From positions 1-64,000 of the IMG/VR virus record IMGVR_UViG_3300047655_000013: 64,000 bases of DNA; one strand, written 5' to 3'. Under the pieces are notes generated by a model. That model searched no databases, was not told the origin of the DNA, and saw nothing but the letters and a program-made list of their open reading frames with translations. The DNA comes from a virus. Positions 1 to 50,972 of this stretch are shown in pieces. Each line of letters starts with the position of its first letter. The first letter of the stretch is position 1. A program made the position numbers and the translations under genes.

Positions 1-216
1 GTGCAGCCACGGCAAGCGGCTCACGCGGTGCAGCCACGGCAAGCGGCTACAGCGGTGCAGCCACGGCAAGCGGCGATAGCGGTGCAGCCACGGCAAGCGG
101 CTCACGCGGTGCAGCCACGGCAAGCGGCTCACGCGGTGCAGCCACGGCAAGCGGCTACAGCGGTGCAGCCACGGCAAGCGGCGATAGCGGTGCAGCCACG
201 GCAAGCGGCGATAGCG
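1..216 (+). repeat. Eight tandem 27-bp repeats inside the coding sequence
   Basis: Units start at 1, 28, 55, 82, 109, 136, 163 and 190, with a degenerate ninth at 217. They are identical except for two codons near the end (tcacgc, tacagc or gatagc). The unit is a multiple of three, so gain or loss of copies keeps the frame. The near-identity suggests recent slippage or recombination. Confidence 0.9.
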
Positions 217-446
217 GTGCAGCCACGGCAAAGGGCAAACATTCCGTCGCGATGGCATCCGGGTTCGAAGGGAAGGCCAGGGGTAATGACGGAACCGCGC
301 TCTTTCTGGTGTACCGAGACGGCGCACCGAACGACGACATCTACGGACGAATCGTCCACGCCAAGGCCGTGATCGTCGGACAGAACGGAATCAAACCGAT
401 GGTTTTTTACGCGTTGAATTCTGATGGCGAGATCGTCGAAGCCTAA
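3..446 (+). CDS. 3' end of a 9-residue-repeat phage protein
   Basis: The gene is cut by the left edge; its frame is open from the first bases. Eight copies of a 9-residue unit (AATASG followed by SR, YS or DS and G) run into a non-repeated cap starting KGKHSVAMASGFEGKARG and ending GEIVEA. I recognise this layout from phage and prophage proteins that carry an N-terminal DUF7666-type domain, a run of nonapeptide repeats and a conserved C-terminal cap. The function of that family is unknown to me. The repeats probably stack as a beta-solenoid (inference). The missing N-terminus would lie beyond the left edge. Confidence 0.7.
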   Translation, partial: AATASGSRGAATASGYSGAATASGDSGAATASGSRGAATASGSRGAATASGYSGAATASGDSGAATASGDSGAATAKGKHSVAMASGFEGKARGNDGTALFLVYRDGAPNDDIYGRIVHAKAVIVGQNGIKPMVFYALNSDGEIVEA

Positions 447-1330: not shown

Positions 1331-1435
1331 ATGTCTATCAACCCAACTTTGCTTTGGTCAGTGGTGATCGGCTGGAGCGCTTTATCGTTACTGGCGCTGG
1401 CTTTCAACTTCGGCGCGCATGGGAGGAAGAAGTGA
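1331..1435 (+). CDS. Single-pass membrane miniprotein, 34 aa
   Basis: A near-perfect ribosome site (aggaggcgaa) precedes the ATG. The product is one hydrophobic helix (about residues 7-27) with a short basic tail (HGRKK), predicting an inner-membrane protein with its C-terminus inside. Its stop overlaps the GTG start of the acyl carrier protein gene, so the two are probably translationally coupled. Confidence 0.6.
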
Positions 1436-1686
1436 GCGAAATTCGTCAAGGAAGCATCGAGGAGCGCGTGAAAAAGGAAGTCGCGTTCCACGCCGGCCAA
1501 ACGGCTGAGTCGATCAGGAGCGAGGATTCTTTCCTTGCCGATCTGGAGTTCGACTCGCTGGATGCAGTCGAATGCCTCATGTCGATCGAGGACGAATTCG
1601 GAATGGAAATTCCGGATGGAGACGCCGAGAAGATCGTCACTGTTCAGGATGCGATTGATTACGTGACGGCGAACGTCAAGGCGTGA
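1432..1686 (+). CDS. Phage-encoded acyl carrier protein
   Basis: 84 aa, typical length for a stand-alone ACP. The motif EFDSLDAVE carries the serine (S42) that would receive the 4'-phosphopantetheine arm. The acidic helix II and the later [19 protein letters not shown] region match family architecture. GTG start chosen because it overlaps the upstream stop (GTGA) and gives normal family length. ACPs shuttle acyl chains in fatty-acid and lipid synthesis. No ketosynthase or ligase is encoded here, so it would have to work with host enzymes (inference). Confidence 0.85.
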
Positions 1687-1701
1687 AATTTAAAGCGACG
1701 G

Positions 1702-1853
1702 CCGCTTTCAGTTTCTATAAGCCGCTAGCGGGAAGAGCCTGCCGCTTGGTCTCCGTTATCGGACCGCCCTGATGAACGGTGATTGAGCCTGCACGTATTG
1801 GGACGTACCGGGAACGCCGCCCCGGCAGTCATCGTCCATCAGGGTGAAAGCGG
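1702..1853 (+). ncRNA. Candidate structured RNA of about 150 nt
   Basis: No convincing reading frame covers this gap. A perfect 9-bp outer stem (1702-1710 with 1845-1853) stacks directly on an 8-bp stem (1767-1774 with 1837-1844), extended by GGTGAT/ATCGTC after a 3-nt bulge. Inside the left arm are hairpins AGCGG/CCGCT (1727-1731 with 1742-1746) and GGTC/GACC (1748-1765). Inside the right arm is CCGGG/CCCGG (1808-1812 with 1821-1825). This is a nested multibranch fold, not a simple terminator. Strand is assumed from the surrounding operon. The class is unknown to me. Confidence 0.5.
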
Positions 1854-7121: not shown

Positions 7122-7712
7122 ATGAGCAACGATCAGACCTTATCGCGCCGTTTCGGCGCCGCAGAGGTAAAGGTGCCGGCCGACGAACTGTTTTCGGCCT
7201 GGTTCAAACAGCAGCTTGGCATGACGGTCAACGTCGGTCGTGATGTGCCTTCGATCGGCGCGGTGTGGCCGGGCGAAGGTGGTGTGAACGGTGGCTTGGG
7301 CCGCAAGGAAGATGGCACACCCGAGTGGCTGATCGTGCCGCCGATCAAGGTCGGCTATTTCAAGGAAGTCACCTACGGCGGCTACGGCAAAGATGTGCCG
7401 GGTGCAGCGAGTTGGTACGACGGCCGCGCGAACACGGCCGCATTGTTGGCGGCCGGGGATGCCTACCAGGCTGCCCGGAAATGCTCCGACCTGTCGCACG
7501 AAGGGCACGCCGATTACTTCCTGCCGGCGAAGCTGCAACTGGCGCAGGTCTACGCCAGCCTGCATGGGGTCATCCCGAAGGAGTGGGTGCTGTCGTCTAC
7601 GCAGTACTCGGCCAACCACGCCTGGAGCCAGCACTTCTACAGTGGCGACACCACCTTCTGGGACGAGGACGACAAAGCCGGCGCGCTCGCCGTCCGCAGT
7701 ATTAGTTTTTAA
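7122..7712 (+). CDS. DUF1566-like protein, former DGR variable target
   Basis: 196 aa, preceded by a ggag ribosome site. The C-terminal half (YFLPAKLQL, then LSSTQYSANHAWSQHF and ALAVRS at the end) has the Trp/Ser-Ser-Thr, Ala-Trp and AVR landmarks of C-type-lectin-like DUF1566 proteins, which are frequent targets of diversity-generating retroelements. Codons at the expected variable positions (cac, agc, cac, tac, gac, acc, acc, ttc, gac) all end in C and differ from AAC only at adenines, the fingerprint of adenine mutagenesis. The template repeat is not found and the reverse transcriptase is broken, so the sequence is probably frozen. The natural ligand is unknown. Confidence 0.7.
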   Translation: MSNDQTLSRRFGAAEVKVPADELFSAWFKQQLGMTVNVGRDVPSIGAVWPGEGGVNGGLGRKEDGTPEWLIVPPIKVGYFKEVTYGGYGKDVPGAASWYDGRANTAALLAAGDAYQAARKCSDLSHEGHADYFLPAKLQLAQVYASLHGVIPKEWVLSSTQYSANHAWSQHFYSGDTTFWDEDDKAGALAVRSISF

Positions 7713-7764
7713 TTCTTCAATCCTTTAACACCATGGCAATCCGCGCAGATGCACGCACTGTCGA

Positions 7765-7950
7765 TCACTCATCGTCAGATGGCGGGGACTCTTTAGGTGC
7801 CTTAGCACGCTGTATGAGTTGGCGTAGCCAGCCGATGCCGTACGCATCCACCTTGGCCCACTGTGCGGCGGTAAGCCTGATAGAGCGCTGTTCAAGGCGC
7901 TCTTCAGGAGGTGTTGGGGGGCGGCCCCGTGATCGTTTGGTCTGTTCCAT
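7765..7950 (-). CDS. Ribbon-helix-helix-like small regulator
   Basis: 61 aa on the strand opposite to its neighbours. A basic AT-hook-like start (SRGRPPTPP) leads into RSIRLTAAQWAKVDAYG, the beta-strand/helix pattern of CopG/Arc-type repressors. The ATG at 7950 is chosen over an upstream GTG. A palindrome lies about 20 bases before the start and could be its own operator. Its position inside the decayed DGR cassette suggests it belongs to that module. Confidence 0.55.
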   Translation of the reverse strand: MEQTKRSRGRPPTPPEERLEQRSIRLTAAQWAKVDAYGIGWLRQLIQRAKAPKESPPSDDE

Positions 7951-7971
7951 GTGCGCATTGTATCGCATTTG

Positions 7972-7982
7972 TTGTGACACAA
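7972..7982. promoter_or_regulatory. Palindrome, possible operator
   Basis: TTGTGACACAA, an 11-bp palindrome with central base, lies in the divergent gap between the minus-strand RHH gene and the plus-strand HNH gene. Autoregulation by the RHH protein is a guess from position. Confidence 0.3.
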
Positions 7983-8047
7983 AAATACCTTGCTCTTCAG
8001 TATTTGTTGAATCACAATAAATGCATCACCAAACAAGGATACCGACC

Positions 8048-8521
8048 ATGGCATTTAACAAACTCTCGCTGGAACAAAGGCTTCTGAACAAGGTGGAGCA
8101 GGTTGGGGCATGTCTTCTATGGATCGGTCAGAAGGACAAGAAGGGGTACGGGCGAATCAGTGTTGGCGGGAAGGTGCGACGCGCGCATATCGTGCACTTC
8201 GAGCTTCACAATGGCCCAGTGCCGGAGGGGAAGATTTTGATGCACTCATGCGATACCCTGGCATGCATCCACCTCGGGCACCTCACGCCGGGAACGCAAC
8301 TGGAGAACGTGCACGACATGCTGGCAAAGGGTCGCGCGAACAAGTGCAGGGGCGAGAAGGCAGTCCACGCGAAATTGACCGAGGAGCAGGTATTGGAGAT
8401 TCGACGCCTCTATGAACCGGGTAAGTATGGCCGTGGATCACATGCGTTGGCGAAGCAGTTTGGAGTTTCACAGGCATCTATCCATTCAATCTTGACAGGC
8501 GAGTCATGGAAGCACGTCTAA
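8048..8521 (+). CDS. HNH homing endonuclease inserted in the RT gene
   Basis: 157 aa. The HNH core is of the phage homing type: MHSCDTLACIHLGHLTPGT (about residues 65-83) with N87, followed by a C-terminal HTH (LAKQFGVSQASIHSIL) and the common ending WKHV. The stop codon lies exactly at the point where reverse-transcriptase homology resumes (RLNPKKT), so this gene appears to have replaced the 5' part of the RT gene. Weak ribosome site aagga before the ATG; an in-frame ATG at 8021 is an alternative start. Confidence 0.8.
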   Translation: MAFNKLSLEQRLLNKVEQVGACLLWIGQKDKKGYGRISVGGKVRRAHIVHFELHNGPVPEGKILMHSCDTLACIHLGHLTPGTQLENVHDMLAKGRANKCRGEKAVHAKLTEEQVLEIRRLYEPGKYGRGSHALAKQFGVSQASIHSILTGESWKHV

Positions 8522-8811
8522 ACCCGAAGAAGACGATTCTTCAGCCTGTCGATCGCGGCGTTGACTTTGTCGGCCATGTCATCAAACCGTGGCGCCGTTC
8601 AACGCGACCACGCACGGTTAATGAGGCATTGCGCCGCACAGCCGCCAGTGCGCCGGCTGATGTGCATCAGCTCGCGAACAGCTATTTCGGCTTGCTCAGG
8701 CAGGCACCGTCCAGCCACCACGACCGCGCGCGGCTCGCGAATGTGGTTCGCGATCGCGGGCATGCCGTCGACCGAGCGCTGACGAAGACTTTTCGCGGGT
8801 CGGTCGGATGA
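8506..8811 (+). pseudogene. C-terminal remnant of a DGR-type reverse transcriptase
   Basis: About 98 residues remain. RLNPKKT, then GVDFVGHVIKPW and LANSYFGLLRQA, are the thumb-region landmarks that follow the catalytic palm in group-II-like and DGR reverse transcriptases. The palm with its YxDD box is absent here, and no copy occurs elsewhere in the window. The frame opens inside the last codons of the HNH gene. It cannot be a working polymerase. A nine-C tract follows shortly after the stop (8827-8835). Confidence 0.7.
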
Positions 8812-36419: not shown

Positions 36420-36507
36420 TCTCAATCCCTTTGAGATCCCTATGGAGGAGCTGCGGAGGCCGGTAGGGAGGCCGGTTTTCGAGAGCGACTCTATCCGCAG
36501 CAAATCA

Positions 36508-42137: not shown

Positions 42138-42220
42138 TGCTTCCCTGAAAGTTGAGCCCGCACCAGGCCGGACAGGGACCGGCTTTTCGGATGCGCAATC
42201 CTAGGTGCGGGGGTTAAGCG

Positions 42221-50221: not shown

Positions 50222-50413
50222 GGCTATTCATGGGCGACTGCCCCAGTTGAGTTAAAAATTTCTCTCTGCTCGGTGCCCATGAGTAGATTCTATTTGGTGA
50301 GGCCGTCCACACCGGGCGCTTAGGTCCGAGGATTGGCTACCCCGAGACTGGCAAGGAATTATGTGGCCGGCCTCAAAGCTTCCAATCAACACAGGTAGCT
50401 GCAGAAGCAAGAA

Positions 50414-50465: not shown

Positions 50466-50541
50466 TGGAGCGAACTGTCGGATTCGAACCGACGACCGAG
50501 TGCTTGGAAGGCACTCGCTCTGCCATCTGAGCTAAGTCCGC
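50466..50541 (-). tRNA. tRNA-Gly (anticodon UCC), CCA encoded
   Basis: Reads GCGGACT for the 5' acceptor strand and AGTTCGC for the 3' strand (one G-U pair), discriminator U, then an encoded CCA. D-arm TTAGCTCAGATGGCAGAGC, an AGTGC/GCACT anticodon stem with loop cTTCCAA, and GTTCGAATC in the T-arm are all normal. 73 nt before CCA. Confidence 0.92.
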
Positions 50542-50686
50542 GGATAGGTTGAGAGCGACCAGTGCTGATCCCTGGCTTGATGACCTCACTGGCGCACACC
50601 GATGTCTCAGCATGCCGCGTTACCGCCATCCGACGAACCGGGTGCGAGCCGGCATCCGTGCACAGTCAGCACCTGCGCATTCACTC

Positions 50687-50807
50687 TCATTGAAACCGCC
50701 AACCCGTTCGCCGCTCGGGCGCGCTTGGCCATCCAGGACGGCAGTCTGCGGTTTCAATGAAAGGGCTCGTTTCGTGAGCCGGTCGGCTTGCGCGTCCGCA
50801 AGCACCG
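50687..50807 (-). ncRNA. Structure-rich non-coding element upstream of tRNA
   Basis: Between the tRNA and the gene at 50973 there are about 430 bases without a convincing gene. It holds a perfect 13-bp stem (50687-50699 with 50748-50760) enclosing smaller pairings, a GGCTC/GAGCC hairpin (50764-50780), and a GCTTGCG/CGCAAGC hairpin with GGT/ACC extension (50781-50806). A further GGCCAGCC/GGCTGGCC pair lies near 50928-50966. It may be a structured RNA of the leftward transcript or a packaging or replication site. Strand is assumed. Confidence 0.4.
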
Positions 50808-50972
50808 TTGGGGCATAGCTTCTTGCCGGGATGGCATTTCATCACGCCCATGTGAATGGCGACCAACGCCGGATTTCAGGTCCGAGGTCTGCGACGGTTG
50901 GCATACCAAGCCATTCATATGGGCGGCCAGCCCGTAGTCAAGCTGCCGAGCCTATCGGCTGGCTGGCCGAAA

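What the first reader, a model, noticed from the sequence alone, without database searches (positions are those of the whole stretch)
1702..1853. Unassigned structured RNA after the phage ACP gene
Two stacked long-range stems (9 bp and 8 bp, both perfect) close a multibranch fold with at least three inner hairpins, in a gap without a convincing gene. This much nested pairing is unlikely in random intergenic DNA and is not a terminator.
Basis: seen in the sequence. Interest (0 to 1): 0.75.

Follow-up and report, generated by a model that had tools for sequence, protein, structure and literature searches.

The report
Phage RNA scaffold holding tRNA mimics
A non-coding stretch in a temperate phage of Paraburkholderia-type bacteria is a genuine folded RNA of an undescribed family, whose last hairpin is an exchangeable slot that in some related phages holds recognisable tRNAs with ruined anticodon arms, so it probably works as a tRNA look-alike or tRNA holder rather than as a gene for protein.

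Summary
The fold is real. The strongest + strand long-stem hairpin of the whole 64 kb window lies at 1766-1845. Eighteen related loci from IMG/VR phages and Paraburkholderia genomes keep its 18-position helix although the sequence changes: 14 of 18 pairs change on both sides, 66 such cells against 18.6 in shuffles. Two relatives share 97% of the hairpin interior but have unrelated, fully complementary stems. Rfam has no matching family. The element is larger than reported: a 33-nt leader, nearly invariant in the loci that have it, right after a stop codon; variable hairpin modules; the long terminal hairpin; then a small-protein gene. In L075 and L058 the terminal hairpin encloses tRNAs that ARAGORN calls at default score, with an extended acceptor helix and a broken or interrupted anticodon arm. 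Four canonical T-arms occur in 16 elements against 0.01 expected. Best reading: a new phage ncRNA family that carries an exchangeable tRNA-like cassette. That it acts as a non-decoding tRNA mimic is inferred; a cis-acting operon spacer is the main rival.

The parts
1693..1725 (+). 5' leader module AAGCGACGGCCGCTTTCAGTTTCTATAAGCCGC, 6 nt after the stop codon of the ACP gene; one copy in the window
   Evidence: Exact motif, no other match in window with up to 3 mismatches, 0 expected; same 33-nt frame in 11 distinct elements with at most 1 mismatch; variants in L058, L075-L077
1748..1765 (+). short hairpin GGTCTCCGTTATCGGACC abutting the terminal hairpin; counterpart of GGTCCCCGTAACGGACC (L040), GGTCCCCGTCAACGGACC (L025), GACAGCCGGAGAGACGGC (others)
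   Evidence: Read from relatives
1766..1845 (+). terminal long hairpin: extended acceptor-type helix 1766-1785/1826-1845 around a 40-nt interior with a T-arm-positioned hairpin CCGGG[AACGCCGC]CCCGG; the slot that holds a tRNA in L058 and L075
   Evidence: z -3.5; covariation 14/18 pairs; 83% identical copy in G142 prophage; tRNAs in the same slot of L058, L075
1846..1903 (+). 3' module (AAAGCGGATGC ... GACGTAGCGAAGTAACTCTG), shortened here relative to L040, L050, L051
   Evidence: Second aligned block to G142, 84%; read in L040, L050, L051, L058, L059
1935..2162 (+). downstream small-protein gene (75 aa), family MGKxxN..., found after most copies of the RNA
   Evidence: Weak alignment of seven downstream proteins; no Pfam, PHROG or NCBIfam match
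1432..1686 (+). phage acyl carrier protein gene directly upstream
   Evidence: TIGR00517 above cut-off; PF00550; phrog_5934

Best explanation
The segment is the distal part of a modular structured RNA of a so far undescribed phage family, lying between and co-oriented with its neighbour genes. Anatomy (shown from sequence): a conserved 33-nt leader, short hairpin modules that are shuffled between phages, and a terminal helix of about 18 pairs that extends an acceptor stem around an exchangeable tRNA-like cassette. The cassette ranges from a nearly whole tRNA to a 5-nt loop. Where a cloverleaf is visible the acceptor stem, D arm and T arm are kept but the anticodon arm is broken or carries a 56-64 nt insertion. 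Mechanism (inferred): it is co-transcribed with its neighbours; the extended acceptor helix ties leader and trailer together, so the cassette is not matured into a decoding tRNA. It is presented as a stable acceptor/T-arm tRNA mimic that engages proteins which recognise that half of tRNA (processing, modifying or tRNA-attacking enzymes) during infection. The copy in this window is a reduced cassette without a recognisable anticodon arm.
For: Covariation: A4, 19 members, 86.3% of cells paired against 67.6% shuffled and 25-43% when slid; 66 double-sided cells against 18.6; covariation score 0.540 against 0.177. Arm-swap permutation on 11 members 0 of 20000. L045 and L076: interior 97% identical, inner stem 33% identical, both perfectly complementary. 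tRNA nature of the slot: ARAGORN default-score tRNA in L058 (56-nt insertion in the anticodon loop) and L075 (cloverleaf, anticodon stem mostly mispaired); lower-score tRNA with 64-nt insertion in L043; four canonical T-arms against 0.01 in shuffles, maximum 1. T arms and D arms read in the direction of the flanking genes. No Rfam family.
Against: The cassette is reduced to 5-8 nt in L050, L044 and L061, so a tRNA mimic cannot be the whole function. The window's own cassette matches no tRNA model. Only two cassettes are ARAGORN tRNAs at default score. G.U and A.C counts in the helix do not by themselves fix the strand (22 and 16). No transcript data; no protein partner known.
Confidence: 0.5

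Rival explanations
1. Cis-acting operon element: the leader and terminal helix form a structured 5' UTR or intergenic processing/stability signal for the downstream small-protein gene, and tRNA pieces and homing endonucleases are neutral insertions in a tolerant loop.
For: Always between two co-oriented genes in the loci examined; leader starts a few nt after a stop codon; the terminal hairpin or 3' module is followed closely by a Shine-Dalgarno-like stretch; downstream genes are usually of one family; cassette can be almost absent (L050, L044, L061); an HNH endonuclease ORF sits inside the element in L050.
Against: Downstream gene looks unrelated in L025, L026 and L075; neutral debris would not be expected to keep elbow arms (D, T, acceptor) while losing the anticodon arm; stems are re-made when sequence changes.
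Confidence: 0.35
2. DNA-level element (replication origin, recombination or integration hot spot) whose hairpins act as cruciforms or single-stranded DNA structures, like integron attC sites.
For: Conserved frame with variable centre and mosaic modules resembles structure-recognised recombination sites; A.C mismatches recur at fixed helix positions.
Against: Canonical tRNA T and D arms in one orientation are an RNA signature; no integrase or recombinase gene was noted in the ORFs within 2.5 kb, though most of those ORFs in relatives were not run against family libraries; single-copy leader, no iterons; attC core motifs GTTRRRY/RYYYAAC are not at the helix ends.
Confidence: 0.08
3. Decaying phage tRNA genes: the slot is a graveyard of tRNAs that lost function, without any role.
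For: Range from near-complete to unrecognisable; anticodon arms damaged.
Against: Helix pairing is restored after sequence replacement with the interior unchanged and 86% of helix cells stay paired across 19 divergent members; the leader is nearly invariant.
Confidence: 0.05

Closest known systems
GOLLD RNA (phage and prophage giant RNA)
   Same: Phage-borne, function unknown, part conserved and part variable, phage tRNAs sometimes sit in a linker of the RNA (PMC12286853)
   Different: No Rfam model matches, GOLLD included; the element is about 120-790 nt against >800 for many GOLLDs; tRNA is enclosed by an extended acceptor helix, not in a linker; found here only in phages of one bacterial group
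Phage-encoded tRNAs with altered anticodon loops (PMC10264068)
   Same: tRNA bodies carried by phages with changed anticodon loops
   Different: Here the anticodon arm is destroyed or interrupted and the acceptor stem is fused into a longer helix, so decoding is unlikely
Proteo-phage-1 RNA (RF03044)
   Same: Small structured RNA of proteobacterial phages; one lies in the same phage as L050
   Different: Different fold and sequence; no match to any copy of this element
Retron msr-msd RNA
   Same: Drawn fold of the window copy looks alike: flanking stem, short hairpins, one long hairpin (resemblance from memory)
   Different: No retron RT beside it; flanking stem not conserved; long hairpin holds tRNAs in relatives

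Membership tests
tRNA (RF00005 / ARAGORN) | Cloverleaf with acceptor, D, anticodon and T arms scoring above threshold | tested here: not met
   Window copy: no tRNA match at E<=10 or by ARAGORN default; relatives L058 and L075 do score in the same slot
GOLLD | Match to the Rfam covariance model | tested here: not met
   No match for the window copy or the relatives scanned
GOLLD | Homo-oligomeric cage formation | not testable with these tools
   Needs cryo-EM or native gels
ROOL | Match to the Rfam covariance model | tested here: not met
Retron ncRNA | Reverse transcriptase gene adjacent | tested here: not met
   Flanking genes are HNH, ACP and small proteins; the only RT noticed in the window is a fragment at 8425-8808 of the phrog_1423 family
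Retron ncRNA | Conserved a1/a2 inverted repeat | tested here: not met
   Outer stem partner missing in 11 of 15 leader-bearing relatives
Group I intron | Rfam group I core | tested here: not met
   No match in window copy or scanned relatives, including L050 with an HNH ORF inside the element
Integron attC | Terminal GTTRRRY / RYYYAAC boxes | tested here: not met
   Helix ends are GCCCTGA / CAGGGC in almost all members, read from alignment A4
Proteo-phage-1 | Rfam covariance model match | tested here: not met
   Only found elsewhere, in L071
Intrinsic terminator | GC stem followed by U tract | tested here: not met
   The simple scan reports only a weak stem at 1692-1708 with an interrupted T tail (2 sites in the region, 0.9 expected); the same leader in relatives lacks the T tail; the long hairpin 1766-1845 is not called

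The most novel reading that the evidence does not exclude
A new class of phage RNA: a scaffold with a standardised helical socket into which different phages place different non-decoding tRNA bodies, used as interchangeable tRNA mimics against (or to recruit) tRNA-recognising host enzymes, with further long-stem RNAs in the late tRNA region of the same phage.
Probability: 0.3. Interest if true: 0.88.

Novelty: new variant of a known kind. Interest (0 to 1): 0.72.

Why it matters
Structured RNAs are rarely annotated in phages, and several known ones (GOLLD, ROOL) have no known function yet recur next to tRNAs. A small, modular, strongly covarying family with a tRNA in a defined socket offers a tractable case for asking what phages do with tRNA bodies that cannot decode. 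It also shows that intergenic gaps in temperate phages of one genus hold a whole undescribed RNA family.

Tried and rejected
Direct homology: no blastn match of the window copy in 50,697 phage or 72,556 plasmid records, nor of a longer relative, L041. Synteny route through the gene at 2574 gave loci without the RNA. The ACP route gave two unrelated phages without it. Nine genome hits to the leader (L028-L036) are coincidences in one host protein-coding region and were discarded (I take the gene for penicillin-binding protein 2 from its wording, not tested). Hammerhead-like CUGAUGA ... GAAA was considered; CUGAUGA is base-paired in the helix, so rejected. A conserved peptide in module C (ELNATPAGPVVGARSGATAGETA) was considered: changes seen between relatives are mostly amino-acid changing and it is absent from the window copy, so not supported as protein. 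ARAGORN at reduced thresholds gives many overlapping calls and was treated as noise, apart from the L043 call that fits the slot exactly. A strict leader pattern in 398 family genomes found one match, so the element is rare outside this group of phages. A first bracket string for the second RNA was off by one column and was redone.

Full report
What is in the sequence. The window is part of a 65,076-base virus record. Its terminase is 88% identical to that of a locus in Paraburkholderia phenazinium. Between the acyl carrier protein gene (1432-1686; TIGR00517) and a 75-aa gene of unknown family (1935-2162) lies a gap of about 250 bases without a convincing ORF. Its core is the hairpin 1766-1845: 9 bp, an A.C mismatch, 10 bp, with a 40-nt interior. 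It has the highest score of any + strand long-stem hairpin in the 64 kb, and two locally shuffled windows reached 36 and 34 against 43. Rfam has no match even at E<=10.

Finding relatives. blastn against phage and plasmid records found nothing. Searching 144 genomes of the genus of the P. phenazinium genome gave real matches in G142 (83% over the hairpin plus a 3' block) and G019 (79% over the 5' part), both near an ACP gene. A 33-nt leader recognised in these (AAGCGACGGCCGCTYTNAGNNNCTATAAGCCGC) was scanned against IMG/VR and gave 11 loci; a module pattern and a looser leader pattern gave L058-L062 and L075-L077. Nineteen distinct terminal hairpins, counting the window's, were collected. Six of 144 genus genomes match part of the element of L041 at E<=0.001; a strict leader pattern finds 1 of 398 family genomes.

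Architecture. The leader follows the stop codon of the upstream gene by a few nucleotides in the loci that have it, and was seen once per locus or phage stretch searched. It is followed by a short hairpin, then by zero to several modules that recur in different combinations (read), then by the terminal long hairpin, then in some copies by a 3' module (AAAGCGGATGC ... GACGTAGCGAAGTAAC), then by a Shine-Dalgarno-like stretch and a small gene. Copies range from about 120 nt (L044) to the 790 nt examined for L051, and L050 has an HNH-type endonuclease ORF inside the element. L051, L059, L060, L061 and L062 lack the standard leader but keep other modules.

Structure test. The two 18-nt arms of the terminal hairpin of all 19 members align without gaps (A4). 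The interior was replaced by a fixed GAAA linker for this test, so only the helix is tested, and the arms were put in register by hand, which leans towards the structure. 86.3% of cells pair against 67.6% in column shuffles; 14 of 18 pairs show changes on both sides; 66 cells against 18.6; every slid register falls to 25-43% paired. On the first 11 members an arm-swap permutation gave 0 of 20,000 as good as the true pairing. The cleanest single case is L045 against L076: interiors 97% identical, inner stems 33% identical, each perfectly complementary (GAGTAGCGG/CCGCTACTC and GGAACGGAG/CTCCGTTCC). Part of the inner-arm covariation may come from whole cassettes arriving with their own stems, but this case and the window/L051/L040 group show replacement within one cassette type.

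Its 3' partner AAAGCGG is absent from 11 of 15 leader-bearing members and present in L051 and L059, which lack the leader (for L044-L046 and similar the flank read is short, but the next gene follows at once). Folding a wider stretch also replaces it by a local hairpin. It is not a conserved feature.

What the terminal hairpin is. In L058 ARAGORN at default threshold calls a tRNA exactly in the hairpin, with a 56-nt insertion in the anticodon loop; the D arm TGGCGGAATTGGTAGACGC and T arm CCGGGTTCGAGTCCCGG are canonical, and the acceptor stem runs on without break into the conserved GCCCTGATGG/CCATCAGGGC helix. In L075 ARAGORN calls a 72-base cloverleaf whose anticodon stem has mispaired positions; again the acceptor continues towards GCCCTG/CAGGGC. 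L043 gives a weaker tRNA with a 64-nt insertion. Across 16 elements there are four T-arm motifs with full 5-bp stems against a shuffle mean of 0.01; two of them are in the middle module of L040, not in the terminal slot, and L025 has a fifth with a 4-bp stem. In the window copy the interior has a 5-bp hairpin directly abutting the acceptor 3' strand, the position of a T arm, but no tRNA model matches; calling it tRNA-derived is an inference from the shared slot. Three members have almost no interior (L050, L044, L061).

How it may work. Shown: the direction of the flanking genes and of the tRNA arms agree; the helix is kept paired while its sequence changes; the cassette is exchangeable; in the three members where a cloverleaf can be drawn the decoding arm is the damaged one. 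Inferred: co-transcription with the neighbours; that pairing of leader and trailer hinders RNase P and 3' maturation (general knowledge of tRNA processing, not tested), so the product is more likely a tRNA look-alike than an adaptor. Candidate partners are enzymes that recognise the acceptor/T-arm half. Phage tRNAs have been proposed to evade host tRNA nucleases by anticodon-loop changes (PMC10264068), and GOLLD sometimes carries phage tRNAs in its linker (PMC12286853), which makes a tRNA-related role plausible. The main rival, a cis-acting operon element with a tolerant insertion loop, is not excluded and is favoured by the members with minimal loops.

Relation to the ACP gene. A profile of the ACPs finds one upstream in seven of the examined elements (window, L050, L052, L051, L042, L060, L059), and the L077 upstream gene reads as one too, but not in the others, so a functional link is not established.

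Limits. The literature search covers only open-licence papers, and no paper on such an element was found. Rfam covers only described families. No expression data were available. Strand assignment rests on tRNA arms and gene direction, not on G.U counts.

Noticed in passing
50684-50763 (-): Second long-stem RNA, 16-bp closing helix around a core AGACTGCC...AAGCGCGCC...ACGGGTTG; relatives L063, L064 and L067 keep core and pairing; 4 of 14 pairs changed on both sides with only 4 sequences, no Rfam match.
   Followed up: partly
50845-50925 and 50298-50375: Two further long-stem hairpins beside the tRNA-Gly (50466-50541, -); 50845-50925 on the + strand has z -6.2.
   Followed up: partly
7122-8811 (+): Probable wrecked diversity-generating retroelement: a protein matching phrog_4245 with a variable-protein-like C-terminus (from wording), then an HNH endonuclease ORF (8048-8518), then only a C-terminal piece of a reverse transcriptase (phrog_1423). 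In related phage L040 an RT-15 RNA (RF03018) lies downstream of the element.
   Followed up: partly
42143-42211 and 36438-36501 (-): Two int-alpA RNA (RF02996) matches in one phage.
   Followed up: no
1-243 (+): 27-nt tandem repeat encoding GAATASGxS repeats; looks like a head-repeat adhesin or tail fibre end.
   Followed up: no
L071 1776-1856 and 1598-1666: Proteo-phage-1 RNA beside a tRNA-like element that scores against mascRNA, in the same phage as L050.
   Followed up: partly
L050 element interior; L045/L054: HNH homing-type endonuclease ORF inserted between RNA modules in L050; in L045/L054 a GIY-YIG-like ORF (by wording) directly follows the RNA.
   Followed up: no
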